From: Perkinsus marinus ATCC 50983
Taxonomy: Eukaryota; Perkinsozoa; Perkinsida; Perkinsidae
Direction: 5' to 3'
Length of the DNA stretch: 43,164 nt
Assembly (NCBI RefSeq): GCF_000006405.1
Contig: NW_003211409.1
Location: 1-43,164 of the forward strand
Positions 1-8,504 of the stretch are shown one piece after another (position 1 is the stretch's first letter; the number at the start of each line of letters is the position of its first letter). Below the pieces are notes generated by a model. It ran no database searches. It was not told the DNA's origin and saw nothing but the letters and a program-made list of their open reading frames with translations. Both the position numbers and the translations under genes were made by a program.

Positions 1-3000
1 TGGCATCAATTTTGAAGTCACTCCCAATGGGACCTTCGACCGCCCATCCCATATGGATTGCAATACTAAGGTCAACCTAACGTAAGGCACTTAGCCAATG
101 TAGTTGAATAAGCAACATAATCGGTCCAAGACCCCACCGTTGCCGTGGAATGTTGACTCTTTGCAGGAAGCGGGGCATCCTCTCCCTGACAGTGTAGGCG
201 AAATTGGGATGAGTGACTAAACGACTCTCACCTCAGTGGCACCACTCCTACGGCTGGAGAATCGTTCAAGTTGAGATAACATTTTCAGACCACAGAAGAA
301 TGCCTTGTCTGCCATCTTGGATCGCTTGAGAAGCACCTCCTGTGGCATAAGAAGAGCAGCGAGTGTATCAGTCGGAGACTCACGTTCTTGAGGTCCACCT
401 TGCTGGATTGAGGATCGTACTGATTATCTAGCTTCCATACGAGAAAGAAGCCGTTATCGATATTCTGATTAGGAACGCCACCCCTGAGAGGTGCATAATG
501 AATCGTCTTTGGTGTAGATTGTGCCAGATCCAATCAAATAGATCTATCACGAGCCAGACCCAAATGTAACATACCAATGCTTAGCACAACCATGGATGAT
601 CTTAGCAACCTTGTTGACCAGAACAGTTACGTCCTGACCATAACTGTCGGCGAGGGATGCCAGCCGATTGATACCCACATATGCAAATATACCTACAGAT
701 GTCAATCTCCAAGATCTACCGATTCATACCATATGTAAGCCTACCTAATATACATCGTCCTGGCATCATGATATTCAGTTCACCATCCCCACGTTTCATA
801 CTATTGCCCACTATTTCCGCACCGGCTGTACCGAACCCCACCTGCAAAGTTAACAGATGGGTTGTCGATCGACACTCTTCAAAGTCCAGCCCAACCTGCA
901 GAAGCATGCCAATCTTCAAGATAGTATTCTCCAACATCCTAGTCTCGAGTTGAGGTCCAGCGGAAGTATCATCCTCCTCAAAGTGAGGCGACATGCTTAG
1001 AGACTGCTGCTCCATCTTATCTATACTAAGACATGCTCAATCAAGTATACATGATTCAATGCTGGGGTTGGTTACCGGATGGGTGATGGACTTCAGTATC
1101 CTGAACCTGAATACTTGCCACCAGAGCAGAGATGAACCCAGTGTTATCTTACTTCACGTTTACGGAGAGGATCCTCAGCCAACTGCTTGATTATGTTGAC
1201 CATTTTCTCAATTGGGCCGATGACCAATTTCTGTGTGTCGTTCTGGAACTGTATACTCAATGTACCTGACGAAAACGAATCGTGTTACATAATCCCGACT
1301 CCAAATGTGGACAACATCATCATTTCGAAGAAATGGGAGTAGGAAGGTTCCGGGCGCCTTCCGTACGGACGTTCCCTCATGGGAATCCACGAAAGGCTTC
1401 CATCGATACAGGAGTGATAATATTATCGAGCATAGACTGAGCTCTATAAACTATAGTGATGGTATAGCTATGTCCGGGCTGCACTACCTAATAGGATACA
1501 GACAAAAAGTGTGGATATCATATCCAACGCGTTCGATGTCTGTTGAAGAGACTTTGTCTCGAATCGAGCATAGGCTATAGCTTTGTCGCATCCGGGAGTT
1601 TCAGCAAGCATGACCGAGTCATGATCAGATGAACCTAACATAATCATGTTCAGCTTGAATAGTCCGATGATGATGAGGATGGGAATCTACATTCAATAGG
1701 GCTGTAGCTGTATGTAGAAATCTCTTCATGTCGATACGGGCAATCAGATGGCAGTTGAACCCCTGCACAGCTTTTCGTCTGATTCCACGTACCAAGTTCC
1801 GAGTCGATAGATAAGACCTCGAAGTCAGAATAACATAGGCCCTCAGATTGAAGTTGTTCGTCGGCCTCACATCTCTCAGCCTTCCATCATTAAGATAGTC
1901 TGGTACCCTGAGCCAGAGTAACTTATAAGGAGGATCTCCATTCCAATAACTGCTCATAGAGAGACGAGAAGAGTCAATCACGGTCGCCGTAGTGCACAGA
2001 CATCTACCCCTCATCAGTGGGATAATATTTGGCTCTGAATCCTGATCTGGAATATATCCATAACATGTTCTTCCATCCATCCTCTTCTATCCAAGACGAT
2101 CCAGCCTTCTGTATCTGTTATGGATAGAATGATAGTCATACGATCATTCAGTACCCCAACCTGCCCATCACAGCCGAAAGATGCATTCTCTGATGCAGTA
2201 TCGCATCGACTACGACCGAACCAATAGAGCTGGGATAGGCCAGTGTAAAAGGCCTCATCTGAAATTGAGTTCTGCACCGCCGTGACTCCAAGGCACCACG
2301 TTGATGACAACCTGAGTACTTGTCTCTGAATTCTGTAGAAGTGGCATGATGAACAACATAAGGAGGACACCAACAATAACCCTGCGAGTTGTCAGCTCAG
2401 AAAGTGCTCTGCCCAGTCTTGATGCTTCTATGCGCTTCAGCGCGGCCTACAATCTACTAGATCTCGGAGCACACAACCTCAAATTCATGAACACTTGTTT
2501 AGCGTTCTGCGCAGCCCTCGCCTGAGCTTTTAGTTTCTCCTCTTGATCGGCATCCTGCGCTTTAGACACCATGCTATACCTATCGGGACTTGATCATAGC
2601 AGTATTCATCCACAGATTGCACGTTTGTGGCTCTCTTACAGTTTGACAATTCGGATAAGCCGTATAAGCCGCACCAGACGTACAATACGAGCAGTGCCTG
2701 AGTAAATGGTTATGACAGGATCCACAGCCTCTCTAACGAGAAACTCACGTGCCTTGTCCAATCCTCCAGTGGAAGATGTTCCTACTCCCTCAGATGTACC
2801 ATTCATGATATACGCAAGTGCGCTCATTATCCAGGGAATATCAGGTATGATTGATACAGCCGAAATTAGATCGAGAACCTCGAGACTTCCTCCTTAGTTC
2901 GAGTGATGAGGGATTGTCACGTACAAAAAAGAATCCCCACTTGTACTCTGGTTTGGCAACTGTGTTAATAAAGAATTCAAGAAAGAACATGAAGAGTGCG

Positions 3001-4746
3001 AATGCCTAAGATGACAAATGAATTCAAGACAACGACGAAGCCTCACTAGATCCTTACGAATAACACATAGAATACATTGTCAGCATCCTTGTCGAAGAAA
3101 GCCACACGCATATTATCACCCCATAGTGCAAATATAGTAAGCAAGGTCATCACAACAGTCATCAGTTTACCGTCTACGAATGCCTCTAGGCTCTTGGCAG
3201 TATCATTATCTGAATAAGCTGCAGGCGTAGTAAGACAGCTATGTATGTCTAGTATCCCGCGAGCTTAGTATATGTTAGAAGCCCACAGCCTTACCATCAG
3301 CCTCCTCCAGATCTCTATCTACATCATCTACACCGACCTTCAATGGGTCATTCGCTCCACCAGACTTGGCACCACCAAACCCTTGCATTGGTCTCCAAGA
3401 AGATATTAGGGAATAATGAAATCGAGTCCTATAATCTTTATCATTGAAATTCACGGCCACATTCTCAATGCAATGACGGAACCACACCCACATACTGGTT
3501 GTGGTGATAGATTGATTGTATTGGATGTGATCGAACCACGATAGTCATTTCTCTGATTGTATTGGTATAAGATGACAGATTGACATATGTTGTCTGGATG
3601 CTGATACTCCAGCTATTGTACCATGATGTCATTGCATTGACTCAGAGACATCGACAACACAACAAGTCCCCATCATCGTTCATGTCACATGAATCATGTG
3701 AAATGAGGAGAGGAACCCATCCATCCGATTTGCCCATTTCTTCCGCTACATGGCCCTGAATTACTATCCCAATGACAGTTCGCTCTATCAGTAACGAGGG
3801 TGAACCCAGGAGCAAAAGTAAGTCCACCTGAGAGTAACTCATATGAAGGATAGCATCACACGACTCATCATATTCACTCACATCAGTCGGAGCCTAATGA
3901 TCATCGGGGTCTGCATCTCATTCAGCGCATCGAACATCTGTGTGAGTGTATCCTCTGGATTGCTCGGTACGAGACGGGTCTGACAGCACAACCCGTATCC
4001 CAAACCCATCGAGATGTTGAAGGATGTATTATTTTGTCCGATCACCTCTGGCGCGTCCTCTACCTCGTCATCATCATCCTCGGATACTTTCGGCTCCAAG
4101 TTGGAGCTTTCAACTGTACATACAGACAGGGTTCGGGAATCTCCCCACCGGAATAAGAGATACCATTCGTGGGGGCATCCGAATCTCATCTAGTTCAATA
4201 GCCGTGGTAGCATGAAGCCGAAGGCTTTTGTACTCAATGCCAAGGCCAAAAGTCTCATTCTCAATCGATGATAGCCAGATCAGCCTCTTCGATTATGTTA
4301 TGAAAATAACCTGTAGAAATCAAGACACTGGCCTGTGACATATTAGTAAGCTCACCCTGATCCCCAGACATGCATGATCGACATAACAGCGAGCTTGAGG
4401 GAACTGATGAGGGGACACATTATCATCCATGACGACGACGACGATTGGAATAGATAACCTTATGCATGATATGCCTCTTCGAAAGCAGCCAGCATAACTC
4501 CTCAGCTCCAGCACGTGGAATGATTAAAGAGACTCCTTAGGGGTCTCCTTAATCATTCAACGATCATCCACCGAATCACTAGGGGTCGCCCCTAGTACTG
4601 AACAGTCATGCAAGGTAGCCCTGCTACCCTCAACCTAGTACTATGAGCTGAAGATGTATTTGCATCTGTGGAAGGGAGTTGTTGAATCTCGGGATTGACG
4701 ACTTACCGCACAACCAATACGATATCCAGTACTCAGGATCATACAT
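1..4746 (-). CDS. Voltage-sensor-linked class III nucleotide cyclase, probable pseudocyclase (partial, runs off left edge)
   Basis: Multi-exon minus-strand gene. Proposed start is ATG at 4746, a short exon ending at GTAAGT, with a TATATAAA sequence just upstream; this start is tentative. An S1-S4 voltage sensor is read from about 3170 to 2640: S1 near GKLMTVVMTLL, S2 near FMFFLEFF, S4 RIVRLVRLIRLIRIVKL. A charged linker follows, then ALSELTTRRVIVGVLLML (about 2400-2340), a probable membrane helix. The cyclase domain occupies about 960 down to 1: GFGTAGAEIVG, GIFAYVGINR, VLVNKVAKIIHG, GGVPNQNIDNGFFLVWK, then HMGWAVEGPIGSDFKIDA at the edge. Alveolate relatives join ion-channel voltage sensors to adenylyl or guanylyl cyclases and make cyclic nucleotides at membranes. 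Here the metal-binding Asp of FxxCDIR is Gly and that of NIGDAF is Asn, so catalysis is unlikely. Introns in the cyclase part are about 45-70 nt, with one longer. I see no pore helix. The exact exon set between 2640 and 960 and above 3500 is uncertain. Confidence 0.8.
4518..4558. repeat. Long triloop hairpin
   Basis: Inverted repeat with outer arms GAATGATTAA and TTAATCATTC, one A/C mismatch, then inner arms GAGACTCC and GGGGTCTC with one T-G wobble, closing on the loop TTA. The stem is about 19 bp. It is the first of three consecutive hairpins. Confidence 0.9.
4578..4596. repeat. Triloop hairpin (ACTAGGGG arms)
   Basis: Perfect 8-bp inverted repeat ACTAGGGG / CCCCTAGT with loop TCG, 19 nt after the previous hairpin. 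Both share the CCC/GGG-rich core. Confidence 0.9.
4614..4628. repeat. Triloop hairpin (GGTAGC arms)
   Basis: Perfect 6-bp inverted repeat GGTAGC / GCTACC with loop CCT, 17 nt after the second hairpin. A weaker AGATG/CATCT pair follows at about 4652-4667. Confidence 0.85.
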
Positions 4747-5385: not shown

Positions 5386-6591
5386 TTACGCATTACGCAC
5401 ACACTCATCCATAGCATCGATAACGTACTGAATATTGTGCTTGTTTAAGCCGGCCATAGAGATACGGCCATTCTTGAGCATATAGACATGATGCTTGTTA
5501 ATCATACGCTCAGACTGAGCAACAGTGAGACCAGTGAAGGAGAACATACCAATCTGCTTCTTGATATGTCCCCAAGTACCAGGAGTACCCTTGGCGGTCA
5601 ACCCATCAGACAGAAGAATACGCATCTCACCAATCCTTCCACTGATAGCAGTCAACTCATCTCTCCACTCCTTCTCATAGGCGGGGTTCTCAAGAATAGT
5701 CTTAACAATTAAACCACCATGAATCGGAGGAGAAGAATACATGGGACGAATGATGAGCTTGAGCTGACTAAGAGCACGAGCAGCCAAGTCAGCACTCTTG
5801 GTCACGAAGTGGCACATACCAGCACGCTCACCATAAAGACCAAAGTTCTTGGCGAAACTCTGGGCTACAAAGAACTCCATACCGGACTGATAGAATAGGC
5901 GAAGAGCATAAGCATCTCTATCCAAATCACCAGAAGCATATCCCTGATAAGCACAATCAAGAAGAGGAATAAGATGCCTCTCTTGAAGGAGCTTCTGAAC
6001 TTCCTGCCACTCCTCATGAGTGAAATCCATACCAGTGGGATTGTGAGCGACGGCATGAAGAAGGATAACAGATCCAGCAGGAGCCTCAGATAGACAGTCC
6101 ATGCACCCACTGAAGTCCAAGCAACGGTTCTCAGTGTCCCAATAAGGGTATCTTCTAATCTCTAGGCCTGAACCAGGAGCACCGAACACCTTCAGATGGT
6201 TACCCCACGTAGGATCCGAAATATAAATAATGGGCTTGTTCAAAAACTTCGCAATGAAATCTCCAATAAGGCGGAGTGCACCAGTACCAGATATAGCTTG
6301 ACTGCTAGCAATCCTATCACTGGACTCGCCGAAGAGGAGTCGTTGACTGAGAGGCTTGAGAGCCGGGAACCCATCAATGGGAGCATACTCCTTATCGACC
6401 TTCATATCAGCAGCTAACTGCTGATCGACCTTACGAACAACATCGAGCACCTTAGGGTTGCCATTCTCATCACGGTAGGCACCGACACCGAGGTTGACCT
6501 TCTTCGGGAAAGGATCGGCCTTGTAGGCGACAGTAGTACCAAGAATAGGATCCGGAGGAGCAAGATCACACGATTCGAAGATTGAACTCAT
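5386..6591 (-). CDS. Aspartate aminotransferase, copy 1
   Basis: Intronless gene of 401 codons plus stop. It catalyses PLP-dependent transfer of the amino group between aspartate and 2-oxoglutarate, joining amino-acid metabolism to oxaloacetate. Fold type I, class I features are complete: TWGNH near residue 130, HNPTG at about 183-187, the cofactor Asp in LDCAYQG (about 212), the PLP lysine in SFAKNFGLYGER (about 248), and the substrate-binding Arg in GRISMAGLN near the C-terminus. Length matches the 400-410 aa of cytosolic enzymes; no targeting extension is obvious. The frame opens 23 codons further up, but the ATG at 6591 aligns with copy 2 and sits right after a pyrimidine-rich stretch ending in CAG, a possible splice or trans-splice acceptor. 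Copy 2 starts about 700 bp upstream of this gene's 5' end in the same orientation. Confidence 0.95.
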   Translation of the reverse strand: MSSIFESCDLAPPDPILGTTVAYKADPFPKKVNLGVGAYRDENGNPKVLDVVRKVDQQLAADMKVDKEYAPIDGFPALKPLSQRLLFGESSDRIASSQAISGTGALRLIGDFIAKFLNKPIIYISDPTWGNHLKVFGAPGSGLEIRRYPYWDTENRCLDFSGCMDCLSEAPAGSVILLHAVAHNPTGMDFTHEEWQEVQKLLQERHLIPLLDCAYQGYASGDLDRDAYALRLFYQSGMEFFVAQSFAKNFGLYGERAGMCHFVTKSADLAARALSQLKLIIRPMYSSPPIHGGLIVKTILENPAYEKEWRDELTAISGRIGEMRILLSDGLTAKGTPGTWGHIKKQIGMFSFTGLTVAQSERMINKHHVYMLKNGRISMAGLNKHNIQYVIDAMDECVRNA

Positions 6592-7298
6592 TCTGCGATA
6601 AAACTTGAAAACTAAGTAGATAGATAACTCGTCAATGAACAACTCATTTTCCAAGAACAATGCTTACTATGAATCACTGAATAAAAGCAGACATGCCTTT
6701 AGCGATAAGAAGCGCAAATGCTAGTGAAGCTTAGCTAGTAGTCACACAGTTTCAAGCTTAGAATCTAGCTGAGGAGTATGATGGATTCCATTCTATTATC
6801 CACAACATTCCTTATGCAGTCGATAAAAGATGATCGAGGTTGGTGTAGCAACAAAGCTTCTATAGAGAACTTCATCTATATGAAGCGTGTCCAAAAACCC
6901 TGCCGACCACAAATTCACCCTCACAAAGCTATGTATACATCCACAAATTCTGAGAGTACAACATAATATATCTCATTCATCAAACGAAAATGTGCCTGGC
7001 CAGATAGACTGATATCAGACTCAATAACTCCCGTACCAATCCATGCAACTCACCTTGACAATGTTAATGATCCCAGTACAATGTCACCTTTACTCCCCAC
7101 ATCGTCTAGTGAACACTGTTCACGAGCGAGGGGACCTAATAACGCGAGACCCATCGAAACTATACACAACAACATTATCCTTAGTAAAAGAATCGAAGCG
7201 CTACGGATCGTCCTACTGAGGAGTCTGAACTCAATCAAAATCATCTGCAATAAATGATGTGATAATGCTCACCATAACCCATTTTGGAAGATAACTTA
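6592..7298. other. Spacer between the two aminotransferase copies
   Basis: About 700 bp, including the 5' flank of copy 1 and the 3' flank of copy 2. Short open frames (plus 6778-6966, minus 7050-7250) have no family resemblance or supporting splice pattern. The spacer shows no obvious similarity to the flank of the other copy, so the duplication boundary is at or inside the coding sequence as far as I can read. Confidence 0.6.
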
Positions 7299-8504
7299 TT
7301 ACGCATTACGCACACACTCATCCATAGCATCGATAACGTACTGAATATTGTGCTTGTTCAAGCCAGCCATAGAGATACGACCATTCTTGAGCATATAGAC
7401 ATGATGCTTGTTAATCATACGCTCAGACTGAGCAACAGTGAGACCAGTGAAGGAGAACATACCAATCTGCTTCTTGATATGTCCCCAAGTACCAGGAGTA
7501 CCCTTGGCGGTCAACCCATCAGACAGAAGAATACGCATCTCACCAATCCTTCCACTGATAGCAGTCAACTCATCTCTCCACTCCTTCTCATAGGCGGGGT
7601 TCTCAAGAATAGTCTTAACAATTAAACCACCATGAATCGGAGGAGAAGAATACATGGGACGAATGATGAGCTTGAGCTGACTAAGAGCACGAGCAGCCAA
7701 GTCAGCACTCTTGGTCACGAAGTGGCACATACCAGCACGCTCACCATAAAGACCAAAGTTCTTGGCGAAACTCTGGGCTACAAAGAACTCCATACCGGAC
7801 TGATAGAATAGGCGAAGAGCATAAGCATCTCTATCCAAATCACCAGAAGCATATCCCTGATAAGCACAATCAAGAAGAGGAATAAGATGCCTCTCTTGAA
7901 GGAGCTTCTGAACTTCCTGCCACTCCTCATGAGTGAAATCCATACCAGTGGGATTGTGAGCGACGGCATGAAGAAGGATAACAGATCCAGCAGGAGCCTC
8001 AGATAGACAGTCCATGCACCCACTGAAGTCCAAGCAACGGTTCTCAGTGTCCCAATAAGGGTATCTTCTAATCTCTAGGCCTGAACCAGGAGCACCGAAC
8101 ACCTTCAGATGGTTACCCCACGTAGGATCCGAAATATAAATAATGGGCTTGTTCAAAAACTTCGCAATGAAATCTCCAATAAGGCGGAGTGCACCAGTAC
8201 CAGATATAGCTTGACTGCTAGCAATCCTATCACTGGACTCGCCGAAGAGGAGTCGTTGACTGAGAGGCTTGAGAGCCGGGAACCCATCAATGGGAGCATA
8301 CTCCTTATCGACCTTCATATCAGCAGCTAACTGCTGATCGACCTTACGAACAACATCGAGCACCTTAGGGTTGCCATACTCATCACGATAAGCACCAATA
8401 CCGAGATTAACCTTGTTTGAGGAAGGGTCAGCCTTGTAGGCGGTGGCAGTGCCAAGAATAGGATCCGGAGGAGCCAAATCACAAGATTCGAAAAGGGAGG
8501 ACAT
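7299..8504 (-). CDS. Aspartate aminotransferase, copy 2
   Basis: Intronless, 401 aa, same enzyme as copy 1 with every catalytic residue intact (PLP Lys in SFAKNF, HNPTG, DCAYQG, GRISMAGLN). Copy 2 lies at a constant 1913-bp offset with no indels. From 7381 to 8377 I see no difference from 5468-6464. Outside that tract the first 45 residues differ at several positions (SSIF/SSLF, TTVAYKADPFPKK/TATAYKADPSSNK, GVGAYRDEN/GIGAYRDEY), with silent changes too, and a few silent changes lie near the 3' end. The ATG at 8504 is the first in frame. The two proteins should be functionally equivalent; separate 5' flanks may give different expression. Confidence 0.95.
   Translation of the reverse strand: MSSLFESCDLAPPDPILGTATAYKADPSSNKVNLGIGAYRDEYGNPKVLDVVRKVDQQLAADMKVDKEYAPIDGFPALKPLSQRLLFGESSDRIASSQAISGTGALRLIGDFIAKFLNKPIIYISDPTWGNHLKVFGAPGSGLEIRRYPYWDTENRCLDFSGCMDCLSEAPAGSVILLHAVAHNPTGMDFTHEEWQEVQKLLQERHLIPLLDCAYQGYASGDLDRDAYALRLFYQSGMEFFVAQSFAKNFGLYGERAGMCHFVTKSADLAARALSQLKLIIRPMYSSPPIHGGLIVKTILENPAYEKEWRDELTAISGRIGEMRILLSDGLTAKGTPGTWGHIKKQIGMFSFTGLTVAQSERMINKHHVYMLKNGRISMAGLNKHNIQYVIDAMDECVRNA

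What the first reader, a model, noticed from the sequence alone, without database searches (positions are those of the whole stretch)
1..960. Voltage-sensor cyclase with both metal-binding aspartates replaced
The cyclase domain is well conserved around its active site (GFGTAGAEIVG, NKVAKIIHG, FFLVWK, HMGWAVEGPIGSDFKIDA), yet the Asp of the family's FxxCDIR motif is Gly (FAYVGINR) and the Asp of NIGDAF is Asn (NIDNGF). Class III cyclases need both to hold the two metal ions. The remaining fold, splice sites and frame look intact, so this reads as a maintained pseudocyclase, perhaps a voltage-sensing or dimerising partner of an active paralogue, rather than decay.
Basis: partly seen in the sequence, partly recalled or inferred. 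Interest (0 to 1): 0.75.

Follow-up and report, generated by a model that had tools for sequence, protein, structure and literature searches.

The report
Conserved dead cyclase with voltage sensor
In the oyster parasite Perkinsus, a gene joins a predicted voltage sensor to a nucleotide-cyclase domain in which both metal-holding aspartates are replaced; a sister species keeps the same replacements, so the protein likely serves as a regulatory subunit and would make no cyclic nucleotide itself.

Summary
On the minus strand, window 3388..1 carries a 21-exon gene of Perkinsus marinus type, 700 codons without a stop, cut off by the contig end. It encodes S1-S4 with a five-arginine S4, two more membrane helices around an extracellular part, and a class III cyclase domain. 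Metal position 1 is Gly, metal position 2 Asn, the Lys position Gln. Orthologues show this is no error: P. olseni shares all three and also lacks the transition-state Asn and Arg (five of six catalytic residues gone); a partial P. chesapeaki record shares the Gly. Frames are open, but the cyclase part evolves unusually fast (top of 28 rows): a kept but relaxed pseudocyclase. Two trees place it in a clade that mostly keeps the metals but not Asn/Arg; the sister clade mostly shows the reverse, and its Perkinsus member (C77) has lost Asn/Arg too. My reading: a voltage-sensing, non-catalytic subunit of an ancestral two-gene cyclase. Voltage sensing, dimerisation and function are inferred; a family-wide test of the two-halves idea was negative. 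The window gene's C-terminus is not in the assembly, and dN/dS could not be computed.

The parts
1..3388 (-). VSD-extracellular-cyclase gene, 21 exons, 700 codons, no stop, open at base 1 because the contig ends there
   Evidence: structure corrected against P0006-P0009
2640..3209 (-). exons 2-5: S1-S4 with S4 TARIVRLVRLIRLIRIVKL (five Arg at every third place)
   Evidence: the five S4 Arg are at least 90% conserved in a 33-row alignment
2320..2579 (-). exons 6-7: linker helix and fifth membrane helix (EASRLGRALSELTTRRVIVGVLLMLF)
   Evidence: 62 of 66 residues identical to P. olseni P0007 and to P. chesapeaki P0008
1488..2258 (-). exons 8-12: predicted extracellular part, ending in the sixth membrane helix
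   Evidence: (hydropathy, earlier model)
1153..1265 (-). exon 13: juxtamembrane stretch QNDTQKLVIGPIEKMVNIIKQLAEDP
   Evidence: many nearly invariant columns in alignment A1
1..1020 (-). exons 15-21: linker end and class III cyclase domain, C-terminal part missing
   Evidence: spliced aligner against P0009 gives the same introns except in the variable linker, where it read through a stop
673..675 (-). codon GGT = Gly at metal position 1 (Asp of FxFCDIR)
453..455 (-). codon AAC = Asn at metal position 2 (Asp of NIGDAF)
465..467 (-). codon CAG = Gln at the substrate-specifying Lys position
   Evidence: also Gln in Toxoplasma P0028 and Besnoitia P0027
456..458 (-). codon GAT = Asp one place before metal position 2 (NIDNGF)
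5..7 (-). codon GAT = kept Asp of KIDA

Best explanation
The gene encodes a membrane protein whose class III cyclase domain has lost both metal-binding aspartates in two Perkinsus species, so it likely acts as a non-catalytic, voltage-sensing subunit that would dimerise with a paralogue and pass voltage or extracellular signals to it. Shown by sequence: the open frame, the architecture, Gly and Asn at the metal positions, and the same losses in P. olseni, which also lacks the transition-state Asn and Arg (pattern G-Q-N-D-T-A against D-K-D-D-N-R); P. chesapeaki shares the Gly, and its record ends before the rest. Shown by two trees: it sits inside a clade (A2) whose other members mostly keep the metal Asps and mostly lack the Asn/Arg pair, the make-up of a C1-type half, while the sister clade (A1) mostly keeps Asn/Arg and has lost a metal Asp, the make-up of a C2-type half. 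Inferred: A1 and A2 proteins paired to build one shared active site; in the Perkinsus ancestor the A2 subunit dropped its metal site while its sensor and transmission parts stayed under constraint. The likeliest partner is the A1 paralogue on contig C77, which like its P. chesapeaki orthologue has Ser at both Asn and Arg positions, so that pair would lack any complete canonical site.
Against: Over all rows, metal loss and Asn/Arg loss are not anticorrelated (30/29/25/17 of 101 rows, Fisher p 0.42; independent-pairs test not significant), so the two-halves idea rests on particular clades, and the Fisher tests use hand-picked rows and ignore relatedness. 17 of 101 rows and 35 of 197 lack a residue of both sets. 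Clade A2 as a whole is supported at 94/93 and 85, not above 95. The cyclase domain of this gene has the fastest relative rate of 28 rows and keeps only 32 of 52 near-invariant non-catalytic columns, as expected also of slow decay. No orthologue record covers the whole protein: P0007 lacks S3-S4 and a linker as annotated, P0009 begins in the extracellular part, P0008 is partial. C77 has kept or regained both metal Asps, which a simple A1 partner would not need. No interaction, expression or voltage data exist here; the sensor model found only weak whole-model matches (best E 0.12; Ci-VSP sensor 4g7v E 0.40, prob 0.98, TMt 0.63). Asn/Arg of P. marinus itself were not found in the assembly.
Confidence: 0.62

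Rival explanations
1. A gene on its way to becoming a pseudogene: the enzyme is dead and the cyclase part drifts, while the protein is only residually used.
For: Highest cyclase/non-cyclase rate ratio of 28 rows, and 2.34 between P. marinus and P. olseni P0007; 20 of 52 near-invariant non-catalytic columns changed.
Against: Open frames in three species, the P. olseni ones reaching the C-terminal part; 68 of 88 cyclase residues shared with P. chesapeaki, against 76 of 91 for the same stretch of C77; linker plus fifth helix 62 of 66.
Confidence: 0.17
2. Still an enzyme: either the Asp one place before the second metal position takes over, or the chain completes a site together with a paralogue.
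For: NIDNGF keeps an Asp next to the site and KIDA keeps the base-recognising Asp. Class III cyclases that need two different chains are known (PMC8815786 passages).
Against: No acidic residue lies within four places of metal position 1 (FAYVGINRL, FAYVGMRRL). In P. olseni Lys, Asn and Arg are replaced too, so the chain could supply neither half. None of the four paralogues found has all six residues.
Confidence: 0.1
3. An artefact of splicing or assembly.
For: The gene runs off the contig end; exon choice was made by hand and revised once.
Against: An older P. marinus record (P0001) and two P. olseni records show the same residues; no alternative frame holds the motifs.
Confidence: 0.03

Closest known systems
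Voltage-sensor/cyclase proteins of stramenopiles and alveolates (Phytophthora parasitica PPTG_13136 and PPTG_13761; PMC12223298, section 15 and find passages read)
   Same: [quoted passage not shown] PPTG_13136 immunolocalised mainly to one zoospore flagellum; two genes sharing 38.75% identity.
   Different: The passages read treat both as cyclases, and the term heterodimer does not occur in the paper. Named oomycete relatives retrieved here have Ile and Ser/Ala at the metal positions but keep Asn and Arg (IKSDNR/IKADNR); in P. olseni the Perkinsus protein has lost both sets.
ACalpha of Plasmodium and the Paramecium channel-cyclase (PMC5746546, passages read)
   Same: Membrane helices like those of voltage-gated channels fused to a class III domain; Paramecium rows retrieved here belong to the wider family.
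   Different: ACalpha is described as having all canonical residues and confirmed activity; Paramecium tetraurelia P0143 is DKDDNR. The window gene is GQND then cut, P. olseni GQNDTA.
Heterodimeric class III cyclases: mammalian membrane AC (C1/C2), soluble GC, chytrid NeoR/RGC (PMC8815786 passages; PMC3591389 abstract start in a search listing)
   Same: Different domains or chains supply different halves of one site; a non-catalytic site can be regulatory.
   Different: There a productive site is complete across the pair; in Perkinsus neither C77 nor the P. olseni orthologue of this gene has Asn/Arg. RGC1 and RGC2 keep the catalytic residues.
Voltage-sensing phosphatase (Ci-VSP; recalled, plus a weak 4g7v match)
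   Same: A voltage sensor coupled to a cytosolic domain without a pore.
   Different: The effector here is a degenerate cyclase, and an extracellular two-helix module lies between.

Membership tests
Class III nucleotide cyclase, catalytically competent | Two metal-binding aspartates | tested here: not met
   Gly and Asn; same in P. olseni
Class III nucleotide cyclase, catalytically competent | Transition-state Asn and Arg | tested here: inconclusive
   Beyond the contig end in the window gene; Thr and Ala in P. olseni P0007/P0009
Class III nucleotide cyclase, catalytically competent | Substrate-specifying Lys and Asp | tested here: inconclusive
   Lys is Gln, Asp kept
Class III cyclase fold (homology domain) | Cyclase fold and flanking motifs | tested here: met
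   [not shown]
Voltage-sensor/cyclase family of alveolates and stramenopiles | S1-S4 with arginine-rich S4 ahead of a cyclase domain | tested here: met
Voltage-sensor/cyclase family of alveolates and stramenopiles | Sensor moves with membrane voltage | not testable with these tools
   Needs electrophysiology
Voltage-gated K+ channel | Pore loop with selectivity filter | tested here: inconclusive
   No channel Pfam match at E <= 1 (earlier model); fifth and sixth helices flank about 170 residues; no dedicated pore search made
Pseudogene | Stops, frameshifts or lost splice sites | tested here: not met
   None in the 21 modelled exons; orthologue records open
Obligate heterodimeric cyclase subunit | Physical pairing with a different chain | not testable with these tools
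   Only residue patterns and clade contrast available

The most novel reading that the evidence does not exclude
Voltage-sensor cyclases split into two partner genes, each keeping one half of a shared active site; in Perkinsus both partners then shed exactly the half they supplied (this gene its metal Asps, C77 its Asn and Arg), leaving a conserved voltage-sensing, extracellular-ligand-sensing complex with no enzyme left: a receptor made out of a dead cyclase pair, perhaps in the zoospore flagellum.
Probability: 0.25. Interest if true: 0.78.

Novelty: new variant of a known kind. Interest (0 to 1): 0.56.

Why it matters
Pseudoenzymes are best known among kinases (recalled); a search for the word pseudocyclase returned no paper. 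A voltage-sensor protein that keeps sensor and transmission parts while its cyclase site is stripped gives a natural test of what these sensors do besides making cyclic nucleotides. The wider table (64 of 197 rows with both metal Asps and both Asn and Arg) says that annotating this family as 'adenylate cyclase' one gene at a time is unsafe, and it gives two-gene predictions for Amoebophrya, oomycetes and other flagellates.

Tried and rejected
Another splice restoring a DIR motif: none found (7 hits to a loose pattern, none CDIR). My first 20-exon model was wrong in its exons 2, 4, 7, 8, 10, 11 and 12; it was corrected to 21 exons by comparison with P0006/P0007 (with a slip). Another reading of exon 20 (frame RMPRFLQRVNIPRQR) was dropped because P. 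olseni reads GDAPFALTSLQSTIAAVDVGIAFH. A general rule 'metals lost or Asn/Arg lost, not both' was tested and not supported. The rest of the gene was sought in the genome and not found (3 matches, all on the paralogue contigs C217 and C137). No second copy or allele of window 1-1200 was found. For the cyclase part or the earlier full model, Pfam gave no match over a curated cut-off and PDB sequence search gave none; tRNA and Rfam scans of the window found nothing. dN/dS was not run: no orthologue DNA is held.

Papers: PMC12223298 section 15 and find passages; PMC5746546 and PMC8815786 passages only; PMC2447327 searched, no passage; PMC3591389 and others only in search listings. Searches. No title or abstract start in these listings names this Perkinsus gene; only open PubMed Central papers are held. 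The C1/C2 roles of the six residues are recalled.

Dropped rows: the protein searches listed 120 of 189 and 120 of 200 hits, so the family table is incomplete. In the tree, seven fragments and most rows at 93% or more identity were left out (102 of 128 kept). Two of 208 rows lacked the domain, and nine of the other 206 lacked one or more of the six positions. The trees used hand-picked sets of 46 and 28 rows.

Full report
What is there. The window is the first 43 kb of an 805 kb contig of a 54 Mb genome. It is Perkinsus marinus or very close to it: P0001, named P. marinus ATCC 50983, matches the shared exons with one difference. On the minus strand a gene begins at 3388 and runs off the contig at base 1. 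Corrected by comparison with orthologues, it has 21 exons and 20 GT-AG introns (44-91 bases apart from one of 222), and 700 codons without a stop. A spliced alignment to P. olseni P0009 gives the same introns in the 3' half except in the variable linker, where it read through a stop; there the P. marinus record P0006 agrees with my exons.

Architecture. Exons 2-5 give S1-S4, with S4 TARIVRLVRLIRLIRIVKL; its five arginines are conserved in at least 90% of a 33-row alignment. Then come a linker helix, a fifth membrane helix, an extracellular part of about 170 residues, a sixth helix, a juxtamembrane stretch and a class III cyclase domain. Structure support for the sensor is weak: no match at E <= 0.001, best E 0.12, the Ci-VSP sensor at E 0.40 and prob 0.98 (model of P. 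chesapeaki P0008, mean pLDDT 70). Structure support for the cyclase fold is strong, although it was made on the P. olseni orthologue.

The catalytic positions. In the order metal 1, Lys, metal 2, Asp, Asn, Arg, the complete pattern is DKDDNR. The window gene has G, Q, N, D and then the contig ends. Both P. olseni records have GQNDTA. P. chesapeaki has G where its partial record allows. Five of six are therefore replaced in P. olseni. The window DNA shows codons GGT and AAC plainly, and no other frame could supply the motifs.

Kept or decaying. Three species hold open frames with the same replacement at metal 1. No single orthologue record covers everything: P0007 as annotated lacks S3-S4 and a linker, P0009 starts in the extracellular part, P0008 is partial. 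Identity of P. marinus to its relatives is 62 of 66 over linker and fifth helix, 174 of 201 from sensor to fifth helix (P. chesapeaki), 142 of 197 over the cyclase domain (P. olseni P0009; 127 of 189 for P0007) and 68 of 88 over the part held for P. chesapeaki. As a control, the paralogue C77 has 76 of 91 over the same stretch. But the cyclase domain has evolved about twice as fast, relative to the rest of its own protein, as in other rows: ratio 1.5 for the window gene and 1.43 for P. olseni, the top two of 28. It keeps 32 of 52 near-invariant non-catalytic columns. I read this as release from catalysis with the fold and frame retained, not as strict conservation.

Place in the family. A tree of 102 cyclase domains with the catalytic columns blanked and a tree of 46 proteins without the cyclase domain agree: the Perkinsus gene sits in clade A2 with proteins of Amoebophrya, Toxoplasma, Vitrella and Chromera and unnamed ones. 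Support for A2 as a whole is 85 and 94/93; the smaller groups that hold the gene have 98 (23 rows) and 100/100 (13 rows); its exact sister is unresolved. A2 rows keep both metal Asps in 12 of 17 cases and Asn+Arg in 1 of 17. The sister clade A1 keeps both metal Asps in 2 of 11 and Asn+Arg in 7 of 11. The two A1 rows with both Asps are C77 of this genome and its P. chesapeaki orthologue, both with Ser at Asn and Arg. So the Perkinsus A2 gene lost the metal site and the Perkinsus A1 gene lost the Asn/Arg site: each lost the part its clade otherwise mostly keeps. A second contrast lies outside clade A: named oomycete proteins have IKSDNR or IKADNR, and a sister group of unnamed sequences in the cyclase tree has DKDDER (support 86 for the pair; in the non-cyclase tree one such row, P0078, groups with them at 94/91). 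P0096 (Phytophthora rubi) and P0078 are 39% identical, close to the 38.75% that PMC12223298 reports for its two P. parasitica proteins; that these correspond is a guess.

Limits of the two-half idea. Over 101 rows, loss of metals and loss of Asn/Arg are not anticorrelated (Fisher p 0.42; independent pairs not significant). 35 of 197 rows lack a residue from both sets and 64 have all four. Lacking both metal Asps is itself not rare: 42 of 206 rows (fragments included), 4 of them Perkinsus. The idea is thus a reading of particular sister clades, with p values that ignore relatedness.

Paralogues. Besides this gene I found C77 (DKDDSS), C217b (DKDDNS), C217a and C137 (both DREDNR). None is complete; C217b with C217a or C137 would come nearest to a working pair, the latter two having Glu at metal position 2. 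The 31 exon-level PF00211 matches lie on other contigs and were not examined further; they suggest that the organism has other cyclases.

Mechanism. Most likely the protein senses voltage and an extracellular cue and passes them through the linker and juxtamembrane stretch to a dimer with a paralogue, contributing fold and regulation but no chemistry. Shown: sequence, frame, losses, kinship, and the fold of the orthologue's model. Inferred: voltage sensing, dimerisation, partner, site in the cell. The flagellar location is borrowed from one oomycete relative (PMC12223298).

Verdict. It is a new variant of a known kind.

Noticed in passing
window 5386-6660 and 7299-8504, minus strand: Two tandem aminotransferase-like genes (aspartate type by eye); 30 differences in 1206 aligned bases, 27 of them in the first 127, as after gene conversion.
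   Followed up: partly
window 4514-4562: 24-base inverted repeat (88% complementary) with a 1-base loop, upstream of the gene.
   Followed up: no
oomycete proteins P0091, P0092, P0096, P0099, P0112, P0116, P0200: Oomycete voltage-sensor cyclases lack both metal Asps (Ile, Ser/Ala) but keep Lys, Asp, Asn, Arg.
   Followed up: partly
L021 and L022 (contigs C217, C137): Two paralogues with Glu for the second metal Asp and Arg for Lys (NRNLGEAF), the other four positions canonical.
   Followed up: partly
P0178, P0170, P0173, P0176, P0177, P0182, P0188, P0192: Rows including Stentor P0178 with no metal Asp (second position Gly) and neither Asn nor Arg: another possible pseudocyclase line.
   Followed up: no
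P0001, P0006: Public P. marinus models of this gene are fragments that end in introns read through (VRVA; YVTFGSGS).
   Followed up: yes
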